From Phorcus lineatus (taxonomy: Eukaryota > Mollusca > Gastropoda > Trochida > Trochidae): 64,000 bases of DNA. The notes under the pieces were generated by a model. That model searched no databases. It was given only the letters and a program-made list of their open reading frames with translations, and was not told the origin of the DNA. Below are positions 9,301 through 21,300 of the stretch, in pieces (position 1 is the first letter of the stretch; every line of letters begins with the position of its first letter). The translations under genes and the position numbers were made by a program. The stretch lies in contig OV121096.1 in assembly GCA_921293015.1 (NCBI GenBank), positions 11,411,000 through 11,474,999 on the forward strand, given 5' to 3'.

Positions 9301-12300
9301 ATTTTTTATGTGAACACCTTTAAATAATTTGAGGTAGGAAAATGGATTGGAATAGCTTAAACGATCTTGGCTCGTTCCTTCTTAAACTGCCTATTTGGAT
9401 AAAGAAATATAATAATCATTGTATTGCCATTGGAGACACTAATATCTGATTCGTGTGATGAATTTATTTTACGTTAAAACGTGCAACTGCTCCTAATCCT
9501 GCTCCTGATTATGTGTTGACTTACCTGGAAGTTCTGGGCAGCTCCAACGAAAATGTTGGCTTGATTCCAATTGTTGCCATGTCCTCCACTTGTGGACCAA
9601 AGCTGCAGCTTGTTCTGACCATATTGGAGATACACTTCAAGAATTCCGGTCACTCCTGTCATGTAGTAGAAGAACTTGAGGGTGCACTGTGGCCCTGTCT
9701 GCCCTATGGTTGGTGTGTAGAACGTAGTTGTGTCTCTGTATGAACCTGGTGAACTGTCTGCCCAGAGGAAGTATCCCGAGGTACTTGTGCTCTGCGTGTG
9801 GTCAGACGTAGGACTGTAACAGTTTTGATAGATAAACTTAGTTAATGTAATTTTCTAAAAGTCGATTAAAACTTTATATCTTAAAGAGCCACCTATCCTT
9901 ACGCTTGTGTATGTCAACACCACAAGAAACTCATCACTGGCACTGTAATATACTGCTATTTTATAAGATGGAGCGCAATAACAACTCATTCAACTTCTTG
10001 ACATTCCAATTGTTTCGAGGACAGAGATAGTTTTACCCTAAATGTTGCATTTATTTAAGCTATCATATTTTTTTAACTTGCCTATATTTGTCACCCTGGT
10101 TTGACGATGCTTGGATGAGCTTCCAGATGTACGTCATGCCTTGGTAGCCTTGCGTCGTATTGATGGCCCAATTACCCATGTCTCCATTTTCAAAGGTCGT
10201 GGTTGCATGTACTGAAACAATGATATCACATATCCATGAAGTCACCAGCAGCTTTTTAAAAGTTTTTTTAAAGCATTGCAACCTACCGATACGTTCCCCC
10301 AATCGAGAAAAGTAATTACTTGCATAAAAATATTCTCAGTTATCAAATGGATAATTAACCCCATTATTGCAGATGTAAATAAAGATATGTTAAGGCATGA
10401 ATACACAGCCGCCAACTTAAATGCACTAAATCTCTCAATTATACAAATATGAAATATATATATATTTAATCCTATTATTTATTATGTAAAAAAATATGTA
10501 AAGACATCCTTCGAATTTATCCCGTGCTGCTCTGATATGGTAGATTATACCATGTAAGGACTATGAATATATTACTGGAGAAATTACTAAGAGGTTTGAA
10601 TTGAGTCTTTTTAAATTGTATACGTCAGAGAGAGGTGTAATACTAGTATTACTTTTAAGGTTTAAAATGCCTTTTAATTAGCTCTTGACCTATCGAGAAA
10701 TAACTTACCACATTGGCTTTCATCAGATCCATCATTGCAGTCTTTCCTGAAGTCGCACTGCTTCAGCTTGTTGATACACTTGCCAGATGTGTGGCAGTTG
10801 AACTGAACAGTCAGATCACACGAGTGAGGAGCCGTGGTGGGTGGAGTTAAGGTTGATGCTGCCCTAGTGACTGGCGGAACTGGAAGGGACTGTCCAGAAT
10901 ACTGACAGTCTGGAGTGAAGGATACGTCATCGACTGCTATGTCGCCCAGGTAGCTGTCGCCTATCTTAGCTTCAATGATGACTTGGAAGCTATTTGAGTT
11001 ATTTAGAGCAATGTCAGCTCTCTGCCAGACGGCTCCTTGGTTACCGGCAACAGACCAGATTAGATGGGTGGGCGTTCCAGAATTGTAGATTCTTGAGAAG
11101 ACGTTCAGTTGGTTCACGAATTTTCCATACATGTAGTAGTAAAATCTCATGTGGCAGTTCTTACCAGAAGTAGGGGAGAAGGGTTTACTGAGAAGCCAAG
11201 TCCTCTGGTTGTACTTGTGAGGAGCCGATGCTTCCATGTAAACATAGTGACCACTTGCAAGACCTGTTGTATGGTCCCGGTCGGGTCCACTGTTCACTGA
11301 TGGTGTGCTTCCGTTCCAACGAATCCAGTCAAAGTTGTCATCAACTCCGTTTTTGCCTTGTATGAGATCTCCAAAGTTGGTTTCAAAGTTGAATTGTTTG
11401 TACGTTCCACACGTCTGTTCATCAGAATTGTCTCCACAGTCGTCTGTTAAATCGCATACTTTGCTGAGACTTATACATACCTTGTTGGTACAAGAAAACT
11501 GTGTTGTTTTGTCGCAAGAAGCTTGAGGTCGAGGGCGTCCACAGTCTTGGAATTGCAGCTGGTCAATTGCAATAGCACCATGGTATGAGTAACCTGTTTT
11601 CTGGAATGCAAGTGTAAAAGCTCCCGTTCTTCGTCCGATTCCAACCGTTGTTGACTGCCAAGAAGTTCCATGATCGCCTGTAGTCTCCCACAGATTTGAT
11701 GTAGTTCCACCTTCTGTAAGTGTCAGTCTGAGGATTCCAATGTAAGGGCCACTCATGTAATAATGGAATTGTAACTTGCAATTGCCATTAGCAGCGTTGT
11801 ATGTTGGACTTGTGAAAACTGCACTGTTTCCGGATGGTCTACCGCCTGTTTGGTCATGAATGAAAACGTAGAATCCATTGAGATTGGAAGTGCTGTCGTA
11901 TTGGGGTGCCATTGATCTCATGCCAACAGTTGCTGCTCCTGATCCTCGTTCCCAGTTGAACTTATCGACGTGCGTATTTTTCCATCCACAAAGATCATTG
12001 TCAAAACCACACGACAACTGGCAGCCCTTTTCATCACCACCATCAGAGCAGTCTGGTGTAAAGTCACACACCTTGTTAGGAGCAACGCATGATCCATCCA
12101 TACATGTGAACTGATTGTTGCCACATGGGGTTCCAGTATAACCCTGTTGGGGAGTGTTAGAGTGAACTGCGGGTTGGGTCGGTGGAGGCATTGTAGATGT
12201 TGTTGCCCCACAACCTGGTGTGAATGATATATCATCAATAGCTATATCGCCCTTATAACCTGCACCAACGACTCCTTCAATCACCACTTCATATGGTGCA

Positions 12301-18300: not shown

Positions 18301-21300
18301 CTGTTGTAGGTGTTTTTACGACCAGCATATGTTGGGCTGACTAGTATTGCTCTGTCTCCCTTTACTAACCCGCTGGTTGACGTTTCGATGAATGCGAAGT
18401 GACCAGTATTTGATCCAAATGTGTGATCATATTGAGGTCCAGTGCCCAATGATGATGTTCCATTGCTTCCAATTGTCCAGTTAAATTCATCCTGGAGTGA
18501 TTGTGTCCAGCTGCAGAATCCTTGCTCGAAGTCACAACCTCGAATGGGTGGACAGGGACCCTTTGCAACGGTCAAATCATCGATTGCAATATCCCCAGTG
18601 TACCCACTGCCTACTGTTGCCTCAATGTAAACAGAGTAGTCTACACTTGAAATCAGTGTTCGTTGACCCTTTATCCATTTATCTCCCTGAGCACCAGATC
18701 TTGACCAGAATACAGATGAATTTGTTTCTCCATTAAGTCGGATTGTGAGGTTGCCAACTGTCGATCCAAACATATAATACCAGAAGGAGAAGCAGTGCCC
18801 GTCAGATGGCGTTGGTGGCAAGAGTGGTGTCTGTAGCCTCGCAATGTCCCCCCGCTTCCTGGGTGAGGACGTCTCTATATAAAGATAGTAACCATTCCGT
18901 CCAGTTGTGTGATCACTTCTTGGGCCAGTTCCAGAACTTGAAGTGGATCCGGCATGTCTTATCCAGTCGAAGTTGTCAGTTTGTGATTGACTCCACGAGC
19001 AAAGGTCTTTCTCAAAATTGCATTGAAGATTTGGTGGGAACTTCTTAGGGTCGCAGTTGTTAAATGAGATGTCATCAATTGCCACGTCGTTTGTTCTGGA
19101 TGTCAAGTAACCACTTTGAGGGAGAACCCTGAACTGAATCTTGTATCCACTAGACAAATGTCCATATCGACCCAAGTACACTATTCGTCTATACCAAGAT
19201 GTTGCGGAGTAATATGGGCTTGGCCTGTAAGTTGCCAATACGCTGAAGGTTCCATTTACAACAGTTCCAACCTGTAGGGTTCCTGCGTATTTACCATTTG
19301 AGTTTTGATAGAAGAACATCTGACAGTACTGAGATGGTGGTGACAACGGAGGACTCTGAAGAACAGCGTTGCTATAAAAGACACCAGCATTTGAGCCTTC
19401 CACATACATGTAATGACCCTTGTTGTTTCTCACTGTGTGATCAGCTGATGGACCTTTTCCTGCTGTTATCAGTCCTGTAGTCAGGGTCCAGTTGTACCGA
19501 CCGGTGCTCATATCTGTCCATCCACAGTTATCTGTTTCAAAGTCGCATGGTCCACAGTTTTTCTCATCTGAATGATCTTGACAGTCTACAGTATAGTCGC
19601 ATACTTTCCTCTTGTCAATGCATGTTCCATTTCCACATTTGTGTCCTCCGGTATTACATGGGTTAGTGGTGGCGCCTGGGGTAGTCGGTGGGTAGAAACC
19701 TGTTGGTTGTGACACTCCAGATATTTTGCAGTTTGGACTGATAACTGTGTCATCAACGGCGATATCCCCTGTGTATGTTGTTCCACGGACACCTTCAATG
19801 ACAATCTGGAAGTTTTGGTTATTTACCAATGGTATAGATGCTCGTGCCCATATGTCACCCAAGTTTCCAGTCTTGGTCCATATTTTCTGAGCATGACCGC
19901 CATTTAGTGTTTGCATATATACGTTCAAGGAACCTGTTCCGACACCGAACATGTGATAGTAGAATGTGAACGTGCATTTATCGTTTTGTGCTGCCGGTTG
20001 GATAACTCTACTCAGAAGTTGGGCTTTGTCACCAGTCTTACGAGGTGAGGAGGATTCAATGTAGATGTAATACCCGGAGTTCAAATTAGTTGTGTGATCC
20101 CGAGTTGGTCCCGTTGACGATGATGATGTTGGTCCTCTGTGTCGTGTCCAGTCAAAGTTGTCCTGTTTACTTTGGATCCAGTGACAGAAAGATTGTTCAA
20201 AGTTGCAATATGAGGCTAGGGCACACAGAGTTTTGCTTTCATCGCTGTTGTCTCCACAGTCGTCTGTATTATCACAGATTCGGCTCTTGTCAATACAGGC
20301 CTTCCTGGCGCAGGTGAACTGGGTTGAGCTGCAACTGGCTTGTACAGGTGGCAGTGCACAGTTGATGAAGGAAACGTCATCAATAGCAAGCATGGACCTT
20401 GAATAGTAACTCTTTGATGCCTGAATGAGGATCTGGAATGGTGAGGTGATGCGTCCAATATCAGCATAGGCGGCTGTCCATTTGAATTGAGTCGATGCTT
20501 TCGTCCTGTAGATTTCTGTTATCCTTGATCCTATTTGTAAGGACACTGCAATATAGCCATAGTTGTAACTTGAGTAGGAGTTCATATAGTAGAACTTCAT
20601 TTCACAAGTAGATGCTGATTGTCTCATCGTTGGACTCGTGAATGTGGCTTTGGCATTTACTACCCCTTTGGAACTATCTATGTACATATAATGGCCATAT
20701 CGTGATCCTCGGGTGTGATCAACACTTGGGCTTAATATCGATGCAGTTGCGTTCTCGCCCCTTTGCCATCTAAATGATCCTTTGCTGATGTCATTCCAGG
20801 AGCACAATCCACTCTCAAAGGTACAGTTGCCACATGCTGCCTCATCGCTGTTGTCTGAACAATCAGTATGGAAGTCACAGACCTTTGATTCATCAATGCT
20901 TTGACCGTTCTTACATTTGAATGATGTTGGTGCACTTGTTGAGGAACAAAGACCAGGCGTAAATGTAATATCATCAATGGCGATGTCGCTGGTGTAGCTT
21001 GGTCCAACTATAGCTTCAAACACGAGTCTGAACTGGGCAGGTGATTGCACAGACACTGCAGCATTGTTCCATTTCTGTCCTTGGTTGCCTGTTCTGGTCC
21101 ACAGAGTCTGGAGAGGGGCGGTTGGGTTGGCATTTGAAGCATCGAGGTAGAGGTTCAGGGTTCCCATTCCACTGCCGTACATGTTGTACCAGAAAGTAAG
21201 ACAGCCACCCGACGGCATTCTCAGCACTTCCGATCTGAAGCGAGCCTTTTCACCAGCCTGCCTGGGACTTGACGACTCAATGTATACGTAGTAACCTGCG

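What the first reader, a model, noticed from the sequence alone, without database searches (positions are those of the whole stretch)
10709..21295. A 10.6-kb exon in a gene otherwise cut into exons of 73-428 nt
Seen: one open frame of 10,587 nt bounded by normal splice sites, holding 17 full MAMs plus most of an 18th and 12 LDLa modules. Both flanks are intron-rich, with phase-1 introns at module borders and phase-0 introns before the last MAM strand. Every one of these intron sites is empty inside the exon. Precise, contiguous loss of probably more than 50 introns suggests gene conversion by a reverse-transcribed spliced copy. The alternative, independent intron gain at matching places on both sides, is less simple.
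Basis: partly seen in the sequence, partly recalled or inferred. Interest (0 to 1): 0.88.

Follow-up and report, generated by a model that had tools for sequence, protein, structure and literature searches.

The report
Giant exon left by lost introns
Part of a giant animal gene built from repeated modules has lost all its introns in one unbroken stretch, most likely by copying back from spliced RNA, which leaves a single gene in which stretches with and without introns can be compared.

Summary
On the minus strand, 21295→10709 is one open exon of 10,587 nt with normal splice sites. It carries 17 whole MAM modules, most of another, and 12 LDLa modules. The other 89 modelled exons are 73–428 nt. 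At homologous positions introns fill 76 of 91 sites in the flanks and 0 of 64 in the exon.

New evidence supports loss. The exon's 17 whole MAMs are not a clade (p-AU 0.0006). Block M26–M34 (intronless) matches M17–M25 (intron-rich) in order: best of 362,880 pairings by identity. Absence of introns thus follows position, not descent.

Marks of splicing on silent bases are weaker in the exon: exon-end consensus, GC3 (0.40 against 0.55) and avoidance of decoy donors. So the loss is probably old, and a cDNA assembly error unlikely.

Best explanation: precise loss of about 50 introns through reverse-transcribed spliced RNA, in one or a few events. The RNA intermediate and number of events are inferred. 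The kind is known (extraordinarily large exons); this is an extreme case with internal controls.

The parts
10709..21295 (-). the 10,587-nt exon: M25 from intron site A onward, then L4-M26-L5-M27-L6-M28-M29-M30-M31-M32-M33-M34-L7-M35-...-M42-L15
   Evidence: open frame, splice sites, modules
21296..21486 (-). intron of 191 nt before the exon, phase 1, site A of M25
10212..10708 (-). intron of 497 nt after the exon, phase 1, border L15|M43
21487..63819 (-). upstream intron-rich flank: 71 modelled exons of 85-428 nt, M1 (part) to M25 (start), L1-L3; the gene runs on beyond the window
   Evidence: Pfam on pieces of six of these exons: 4 MAM, 2 LDLa
576..10211 (-). downstream intron-rich flank: 18 modelled exons of 73-342 nt, M43-M46, L16-L20, a weak 21st LDLa and an EGF-like stretch by eye
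   Evidence: Pfam on pieces of six of these exons: MAM or LDLa in five (one LDLa below the gathering score), nothing in the EGF-like piece of 23 aa
20937..38792 (-). block I: L1-M17-L2-M18-L3-M19-M20-...-M25, intron-rich sister of block II (the last part of M25 lies in the exon)
   Evidence: collinearity test, tree
15993..20927 (-). block II: L4-M26-L5-M27-L6-M28-M29-...-M34, wholly intronless
10710..15962 (-). part of block III inside the exon: L7-M35-...-M42-L15; M35-M38 resemble M26-M29 and M17-M20
11219..17528 (-). core of the exon with the lowest GC3 (0.337), between two change points

Best explanation
An animal gene for a giant protein of the MAM/LDLa (MALRD1-like) kind once had introns throughout: phase 1 at module borders, phase 1 at MAM site A and phase 0 at MAM site C. 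Long ago spliced RNA of this gene, turned into DNA by a reverse transcriptase or used as a repair template, recombined with the gene between M25 and L15. It replaced the intron-bearing stretch with an intronless one, removing about 50 introns exactly and leaving both ends normally spliced. One or a few overlapping events may have done it. Afterwards the silent bases inside the exon, no longer needed for splicing of short exons, drifted: junction consensus, high GC3 and donor avoidance faded towards background. Shown here: the contiguous emptiness, homologous intron-bearing modules on both sides, non-monophyly of the exon's modules, and the silent-site differences. Inferred: the RNA template, the number of events, the age, and the cause of the silent-site differences.
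For: 0 of 64 homologous sites filled in the exon against 76 of 91 in the flanks. Holding the 17 exon MAMs as one clade is rejected, delta lnL 118, p-AU 0.0006; the label needs 13 changes on the tree against a shuffled mean of 13.9. M17-25 against M26-34: the in-order pairing is the best of 362,880 by identity and among the top 3 by BLOSUM; 7 of the 9 modules of block I have their own centred best match at the in-order partner; M23+M32 have support 99/95. Precision: at site C none of 18 exon MAMs has a gap at the site; at site A 14 of 17 keep the usual spacing and 3 differ by one codon (read by eye from the alignment). Junction relics: site C base -1 is G in 18 of 22 with an intron and 6 of 18 in the exon (p=0.003); site A base -2 is A in 15 of 23 and 4 of 17 (p=0.012). 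GC3 0.399 in 3,529 exon codons, 0.546 in 5,048 flank codons; four-fold GC per MAM 0.283 (17) against 0.446 (28, M25 counted with the flank), p=1.8e-7, with no clear difference at positions 1+2 (0.465 and 0.471, p=0.41) and intron GC 0.315; same-residue pairs of blocks I and II differ 172:108 in that direction, two flank controls 132:125 and 117:120. Decoy donor GTAAG: flanks 1 seen against 9.3 expected (0 of 500 shuffles as low), exon 6 against 6.2.
Against: No transcript, outgroup or read was available. The order of descent of blocks I, II and III is unresolved: (II,III) was never the best of 8 overlapping tests, but in 7 of 8 its p-AU was 0.118-0.407 and only one gave 0.042; two single-module tests gave no rejection and one slightly favoured II with III. 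A shared intronless ancestor of II and III, with fewer losses, is therefore possible. There is no 3' bias: the introns behind the exon are kept. M20 and M21 do not have their in-order partners as best match. The GC3 change points (22968 and 11219) do not fall on the exon ends, and the upstream flank has a change point of its own at 53925, so composition also varies for other reasons. 15 of 91 flank sites are empty as well, so scattered single losses also happen in this gene. Site C in the exon still has slightly more G than background (6 of 18 against 0.148, p=0.04). The looser donor motif GTRNGT is not clearly depleted in the flanks (21 against 24.2, 123 of 500 shuffles as low), and one acceptor-type motif, TTTYAG, is depleted in the exon (1 against 5.8, 5 of 500), among eight motifs tried.
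Confidence: 0.75

Rival explanations
1. An intronless module, or a block such as II or III, arose once and was multiplied by ordinary tandem duplication of DNA, so that far fewer introns were lost.
For: Blocks I, II and III resemble one another in order; a II+III sister relation is not rejected in 7 of 8 concatenated tests, and M28+M37 held together scored slightly better than the free tree.
Against: The exon MAMs as one clade are rejected (p-AU 0.0006); M23+M32 (99/95) and, weakly, M24+M33 (84/75) pair flank with exon; block II matches intron-rich block I in order.
Confidence: 0.1
2. Block II (and perhaps part of III) entered the gene as an already spliced cDNA, by template switching or unequal recombination, so duplication and lack of introns are one event.
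For: The exon begins 0.37 kb before the junction of blocks I and II (M25 ends at 20937, L4 starts at 20927); II matches I in register; (I,II) is the best topology in 6 of 8 tests.
Against: The part of M25 inside the exon is not M16-like as a simple crossover would predict (identity to M34 0.45 and 0.62, to M16 0.38 and 0.45; other modules match as well as M34); the model must explain block III too; the GC3 change point inside the exon (17528) is at M31/M32, not at a block junction.
Confidence: 0.12
3. Assembly or library artefact: cDNA sequence was built into the genome assembly.
For: Any cDNA-genome chimera would look precise and end in exons; no reads could be checked.
Against: A present-day cDNA should carry the junction consensus, GC3 and donor avoidance of the flanks; the exon does not.
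Confidence: 0.03
4. The intronless state is ancestral and introns were gained at matching places on both sides.
For: Introns at sporadic sites (columns 51, 88, 108, 120, 133, 137, 141, 142) show that some gain or movement happens.
Against: Site A is filled in 23 of 28 and C in 22 of 27 flank MAMs, on both sides of the exon. M2, M5 and M8 share an A intron slid by two codons and group together in the tree, with M14, which has the usual place. M18 and M44, on opposite sides of the exon, share a column-108 intron; only these 2 of 28 flank MAMs have it, so chance is possible.
Confidence: 0.04
5. Many separate exact deletions of single introns at the DNA level.
For: 15 of 91 flank sites are empty, scattered. 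End-joining repair has been suggested as a way of exact intron deletion (PMC3652778 passages).
Against: At that loss rate 64 empty sites in a row would have a chance of about 0.16 to the 64th power; plain genomic deletion is held more likely to be inexact (PMC3652778 passages).
Confidence: 0.04

Closest known systems
mRNA-mediated intron loss leaving extraordinarily large exons (Niu, Hou and Li 2005, Mol Biol Evol; not read: seen as a reference in PMC2614967 and PMC12065846, and apparently the analysis cited as [23] in PMC2395259)
   Same: long internal exon explained by loss of neighbouring introns through spliced RNA
   Different: here about 50 introns in one stretch, with intron-bearing sister modules in the same gene as controls; the species is unknown and no outgroup was examined
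internal, consecutive intron losses in Cryptococcus genes (PMC2395259, passages)
   Same: adjacent introns lost in the middle of a gene, 3' introns kept
titin exon 327, 17,106 bp (PMC9845391, passages)
   Same: one giant exon in a gene of otherwise short exons (median 261 bp)
   Different: Ig/FnIII modules (recalled); longer; its origin is not discussed in the passages seen
MALRD1 of mammals, nine MAM and nine LDLa modules (PMC8804323, passage)
   Same: MAM and LDLa modules in one protein; an EGF-like end is recalled for MALRD1
   Different: at least 46 MAM (one partial) and 20 LDLa here; orthology not tested
fading of exonic splice enhancers in intronless genes and retrocopies (PMC4868121, abstract)
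   Same: splice-related silent signals fade after introns are gone
   Different: the abstract says few-exon genes are GC-rich, whereas this exon is GC-poor; here within one gene

Membership tests
mRNA-mediated intron loss | adjacent introns lost together | tested here: met
   0 of 64 sites filled in one run, 76 of 91 in the flanks
mRNA-mediated intron loss | exact removal, no residue or deletion at the site | tested here: met
   site C 18 of 18 without a gap at the site, site A 14 of 17 with the usual spacing, 3 off by one codon (by eye); borders not aligned
mRNA-mediated intron loss | introns present in the ancestor | tested here: met
   by paralogous modules only: block I and both flanks; no outgroup species
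mRNA-mediated intron loss | 3' bias of loss | tested here: not met
   17 modelled introns lie 3' of the one that follows the exon; the bias is a tendency, and internal loss is common (PMC2395259 passages)
mRNA-mediated intron loss | germline expression and reverse transcriptase activity | not testable with these tools
   no RNA data, species unknown
extraordinarily large internal exon | one exon bounded by working splice sites | tested here: inconclusive
   open frame, splice-site sequence and homology agree; no transcript
MAM/LDLa giant protein (MALRD1-like) | MAM and LDLa modules together in one protein | tested here: met
   Pfam; model of 46 MAM and 20 LDLa
MAM/LDLa giant protein (MALRD1-like) | orthology to MALRD1 | not testable with these tools
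   no eukaryotic collection on hand; scans found nothing

The most novel reading that the evidence does not exclude
One RNA-borne event both duplicated nine modules and made them intronless: a reverse transcript that jumped back on its template carried M17-M25 a second time, recombined into the gene within M25 and before M43, and so added block II and wiped the introns of block III in one stroke. The gene would thus have grown by retro-duplication of its own modules.
Probability: 0.12. Interest if true: 0.8.

Novelty: new member of a known kind. Interest (0 to 1): 0.6.

Why it matters
If the loss is confirmed, about 50 introns vanished in one stretch while sister modules in the same gene kept theirs. 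Intron GC is alike on both sides (0.322 and 0.317), so regional base composition is held roughly constant. That gives a natural test of an open question: how much of the silent-base make-up of exons (GC excess, junction consensus, avoidance of decoy donors) is held up by nearby introns. Here three such marks are weaker together in the intronless stretch. It also bears on exon definition as a brake on intron loss (PMC2614967, passages): the exon is twenty times the size above which that paper expects exon skipping where exon definition rules (526 nt). The intron before it is short (191 nt; 10 of 89 introns are no longer than that), which fits that paper's escape by intron definition, while the intron after it (497 nt) is not short.

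Tried and rejected
Own-genome search: none held. Relatives by protein: 10 stretches of viral contigs and 25 of genome contigs matched a pattern, none encodes a relative, so the species and orthologues stay unknown. First reading on the plus strand gave stops throughout: the gene is on minus. Tandem amplification of one intronless module: rejected. Simple chimera of M25 with M16: not seen. Topology of blocks I, II, III: not decisive. GC3 change points as a clock for successive losses: weak, since the upstream flank also has one. Decoy acceptors: of three motifs tried, one (TTTYAG) is depleted in the exon and none clearly in the flanks. Literature searches showed, in the rows listed, no report of this exon or of a MAM gene with such an exon; they cover open PubMed Central text only, and several lists were cut (12 to 20 rows shown of up to 116,054 papers).

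Weak points of the gene model: the HMMs used on the flanks were built from exon modules, so Pfam was used as an independent check on pieces of 12 flank exons out of 89 (8, 4): 10 of 12 pass the gathering score for MAM or LDLa, one LDLa is below it and one short EGF-like piece gives no hit. Splice sites were chosen by score and by fit to the profile, some by eye; the acceptor 43849 in M13 may be wrong (it makes a 12-aa insertion). Decoy-donor counts could be biased by the choice of donors; trimming the last 60 nt of each exon left the result (GTAAG 1 against 7.1, 1 of 500).
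Full report
What is there. The finding's stretch read on the plus strand is full of stops. On the minus strand it is one frame, open from 21365 to 10674. The exon runs from 21295 down to 10709, 10,587 nt, with acceptor ATGTTTTCGCAG and donor GTAAGT, both phase 1. Pfam finds 18 MAM stretches and 11 LDLa stretches in it; a profile made here adds the twelfth LDLa. I built a model of the gene within the window: 90 exons, 25,733 nt of coding sequence, 8,577 residues, no stop. 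The gene continues beyond both ends of the window. It holds 46 MAM modules (the first partial) and 20 LDLa, a weak 21st LDLa (Pfam 15.6 bits, below its cut-off) and, by eye, an EGF-like stretch at the end. The 89 other exons are 73–428 nt, median 144; the 89 introns are 106–1556 nt, median 398, 60 of them phase 1, 28 phase 0 and one phase 2.

Intron sites. Mapped on the MAM alignment, two sites recur: A (column 64, or 61 in M2, M5, M8; phase 1) and C (column 193; phase 0). A third class lies at module borders, phase 1 except L16|M44. In the flanks A is filled in 23 of 28 MAMs, C in 22 of 27, borders in 31 of 36, together 76 of 91. In the exon the counts are 0 of 17, 0 of 18 and 0 of 29, together 0 of 64. 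The Fisher test used 78 of 93, with two more borders that I placed by eye (p=8e-30). The empty flank sites are scattered: A in M9, M10, M19, M20, M43; C in M2, M6, M13, M45, M46; borders M12|M13, M15|M16, M21|M22, M24|M25, M43|L16. No linker in the exon is longer than 87 nt, less than the shortest intron of the model (106 nt).

Loss rather than gain or amplification. A tree of 45 MAMs mixes exon and flank modules (13 changes of label; shuffled mean 13.9), and holding the 17 exon MAMs as one clade costs 118 log units, p-AU 0.0006. The architecture L-M-L-M-L-M-M-M-M-M-M-M occurs twice: as M17–M25, intron-rich, and as M26–M34, intronless. Of all 362,880 ways of pairing the nine with the nine, the in-order pairing is best by identity and within the top three by BLOSUM score; 7 of 9 modules also have their own centred best match there, M20 and M21 not. 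A third, partial copy starts at M35. So an intronless block has an intron-rich sister right next to it. M2, M5 and M8, which group in the tree with M14, share an A intron slid by two codons that M14 does not have. M18 and M44, on opposite sides of the exon, share a phase-0 intron at column 108, which only these 2 of 28 flank MAMs have and no exon MAM has. I read these as introns inherited through module duplication, although chance is possible for the second. Which of II and III is nearer to I is open: of eight overlapping concatenated tests, (I,II) is best in six and (I,III) in two; (II,III) is never best but is rejected only once (p-AU 0.042; the rest 0.118–0.407). Single-module tests do not decide it either.

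Silent bases. If the introns went long ago, marks of splicing should have faded in the exon. Three are weaker there. Junction consensus: at site C the last base before the site is G in 18 of 22 MAMs with the intron and in 6 of 18 in the exon (p=0.003); at site A the base two before the site is A in 15 of 23 and in 4 of 17 (p=0.012); combined p=0.0004. Composition: GC3 is 0.399 in the exon and 0.546 in the flanks; at four-fold sites 0.283 (17 MAMs) against 0.446 (28 MAMs, M25 counted with the flank), while positions 1+2 are alike and introns have 0.315. The same direction holds for identical residues of blocks I and II (172:108) and I and III (83:33), and not in two flank controls (132:125, 117:120); within the exon II and III differ 58:42, p=0.13. 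Decoy donors: GTAAG occurs once in the flank exons against 9.3 expected from synonymous shuffles (0 of 500 as low) and six times in the exon against 6.2; on the antisense strand the flanks show 5 against 9.3 (48 of 500). A cDNA built into the assembly today would show flank-like values, so these results speak against that artefact.

Limits of the silent-base result. In a scan of the whole gene the change points fall at 53925, 22968, 17528 and 11219: near, but not at, the exon's ends. GC3 is flank-like in the first 200 nt (0.61) and the last 600 nt (0.51–0.53) of the exon. That fits either a lasting effect of nearby splice sites or a later widening of the intronless tract. The upstream flank has a change point of its own, so composition alone is not a clock. 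Eight sense motifs were tried: the looser donor GTRNGT is not clearly depleted in the flanks, and one acceptor-type motif is depleted in the exon, against the general trend.

Mechanism. Exactness, contiguity and intact ends are the features expected of recombination with a spliced-RNA copy (PMC3652778, PMC2395259, passages). Repair of breaks from spliced transcripts, with exact removal of introns, has been reported in human cells (PMC12065846, passages). Which route acted here cannot be told. The exon's start lies 0.37 kb from the junction of blocks I and II, so a reverse transcript that itself carried the duplication is possible; I give it 0.12. The part of M25 in the exon is closer to M34 than to M16, though other modules match it as well, which speaks against the simplest crossover version.

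Comparison with what is known. Extraordinarily large exons as a trace of mRNA-mediated loss are a known kind (Niu and others 2005, not read, seen as cited in PMC2614967, PMC12065846 and apparently PMC2395259). Titin exon 327 with 17,106 bp is longer (PMC9845391, passages). MALRD1 of mammals has nine MAM and nine LDLa modules (PMC8804323, passage). I rate the case a new member of a known kind, extreme in the number of adjacent introns and unusual in carrying its own controls. Ten literature searches showed no report of it in the rows listed, in open PubMed Central text.

What is missing. The species is not identified, no orthologue was found in the collections on hand, and there are no RNA or DNA reads.

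Noticed in passing
48103-62846: Upstream MAMs resemble one another with period three (M2~M5~M8, M3~M6~M9, M4~M7~M10); M2, M5, M8 share an A intron slid two codons upstream.
   Followed up: partly
9814-10081: The first intron of M43 has a GC donor and lies at a new place (column 51, phase 2); site A of M43 is empty.
   Followed up: partly
[quoted passage not shown]
   Followed up: no
10709-21295: GC3 of the exon has sub-segments: 0.41 (21293-17531), 0.34 (17528-11222), 0.53 (11219-10712); the change point at 11219 lies about 30 nt from the empty site A of M42 (11251).
   Followed up: partly
33249-33563: Tandem array with a 37-bp unit, about 8 copies, nearly all of it in the intron between L3 and M19.
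   Followed up: no
62373-62596: Intronic tandem array with a 39-bp unit, about 6 copies.
   Followed up: no
40399-41665: M15 is the most worn complete MAM of the upstream flank (92 bits against 122-193 for the others).
   Followed up: no
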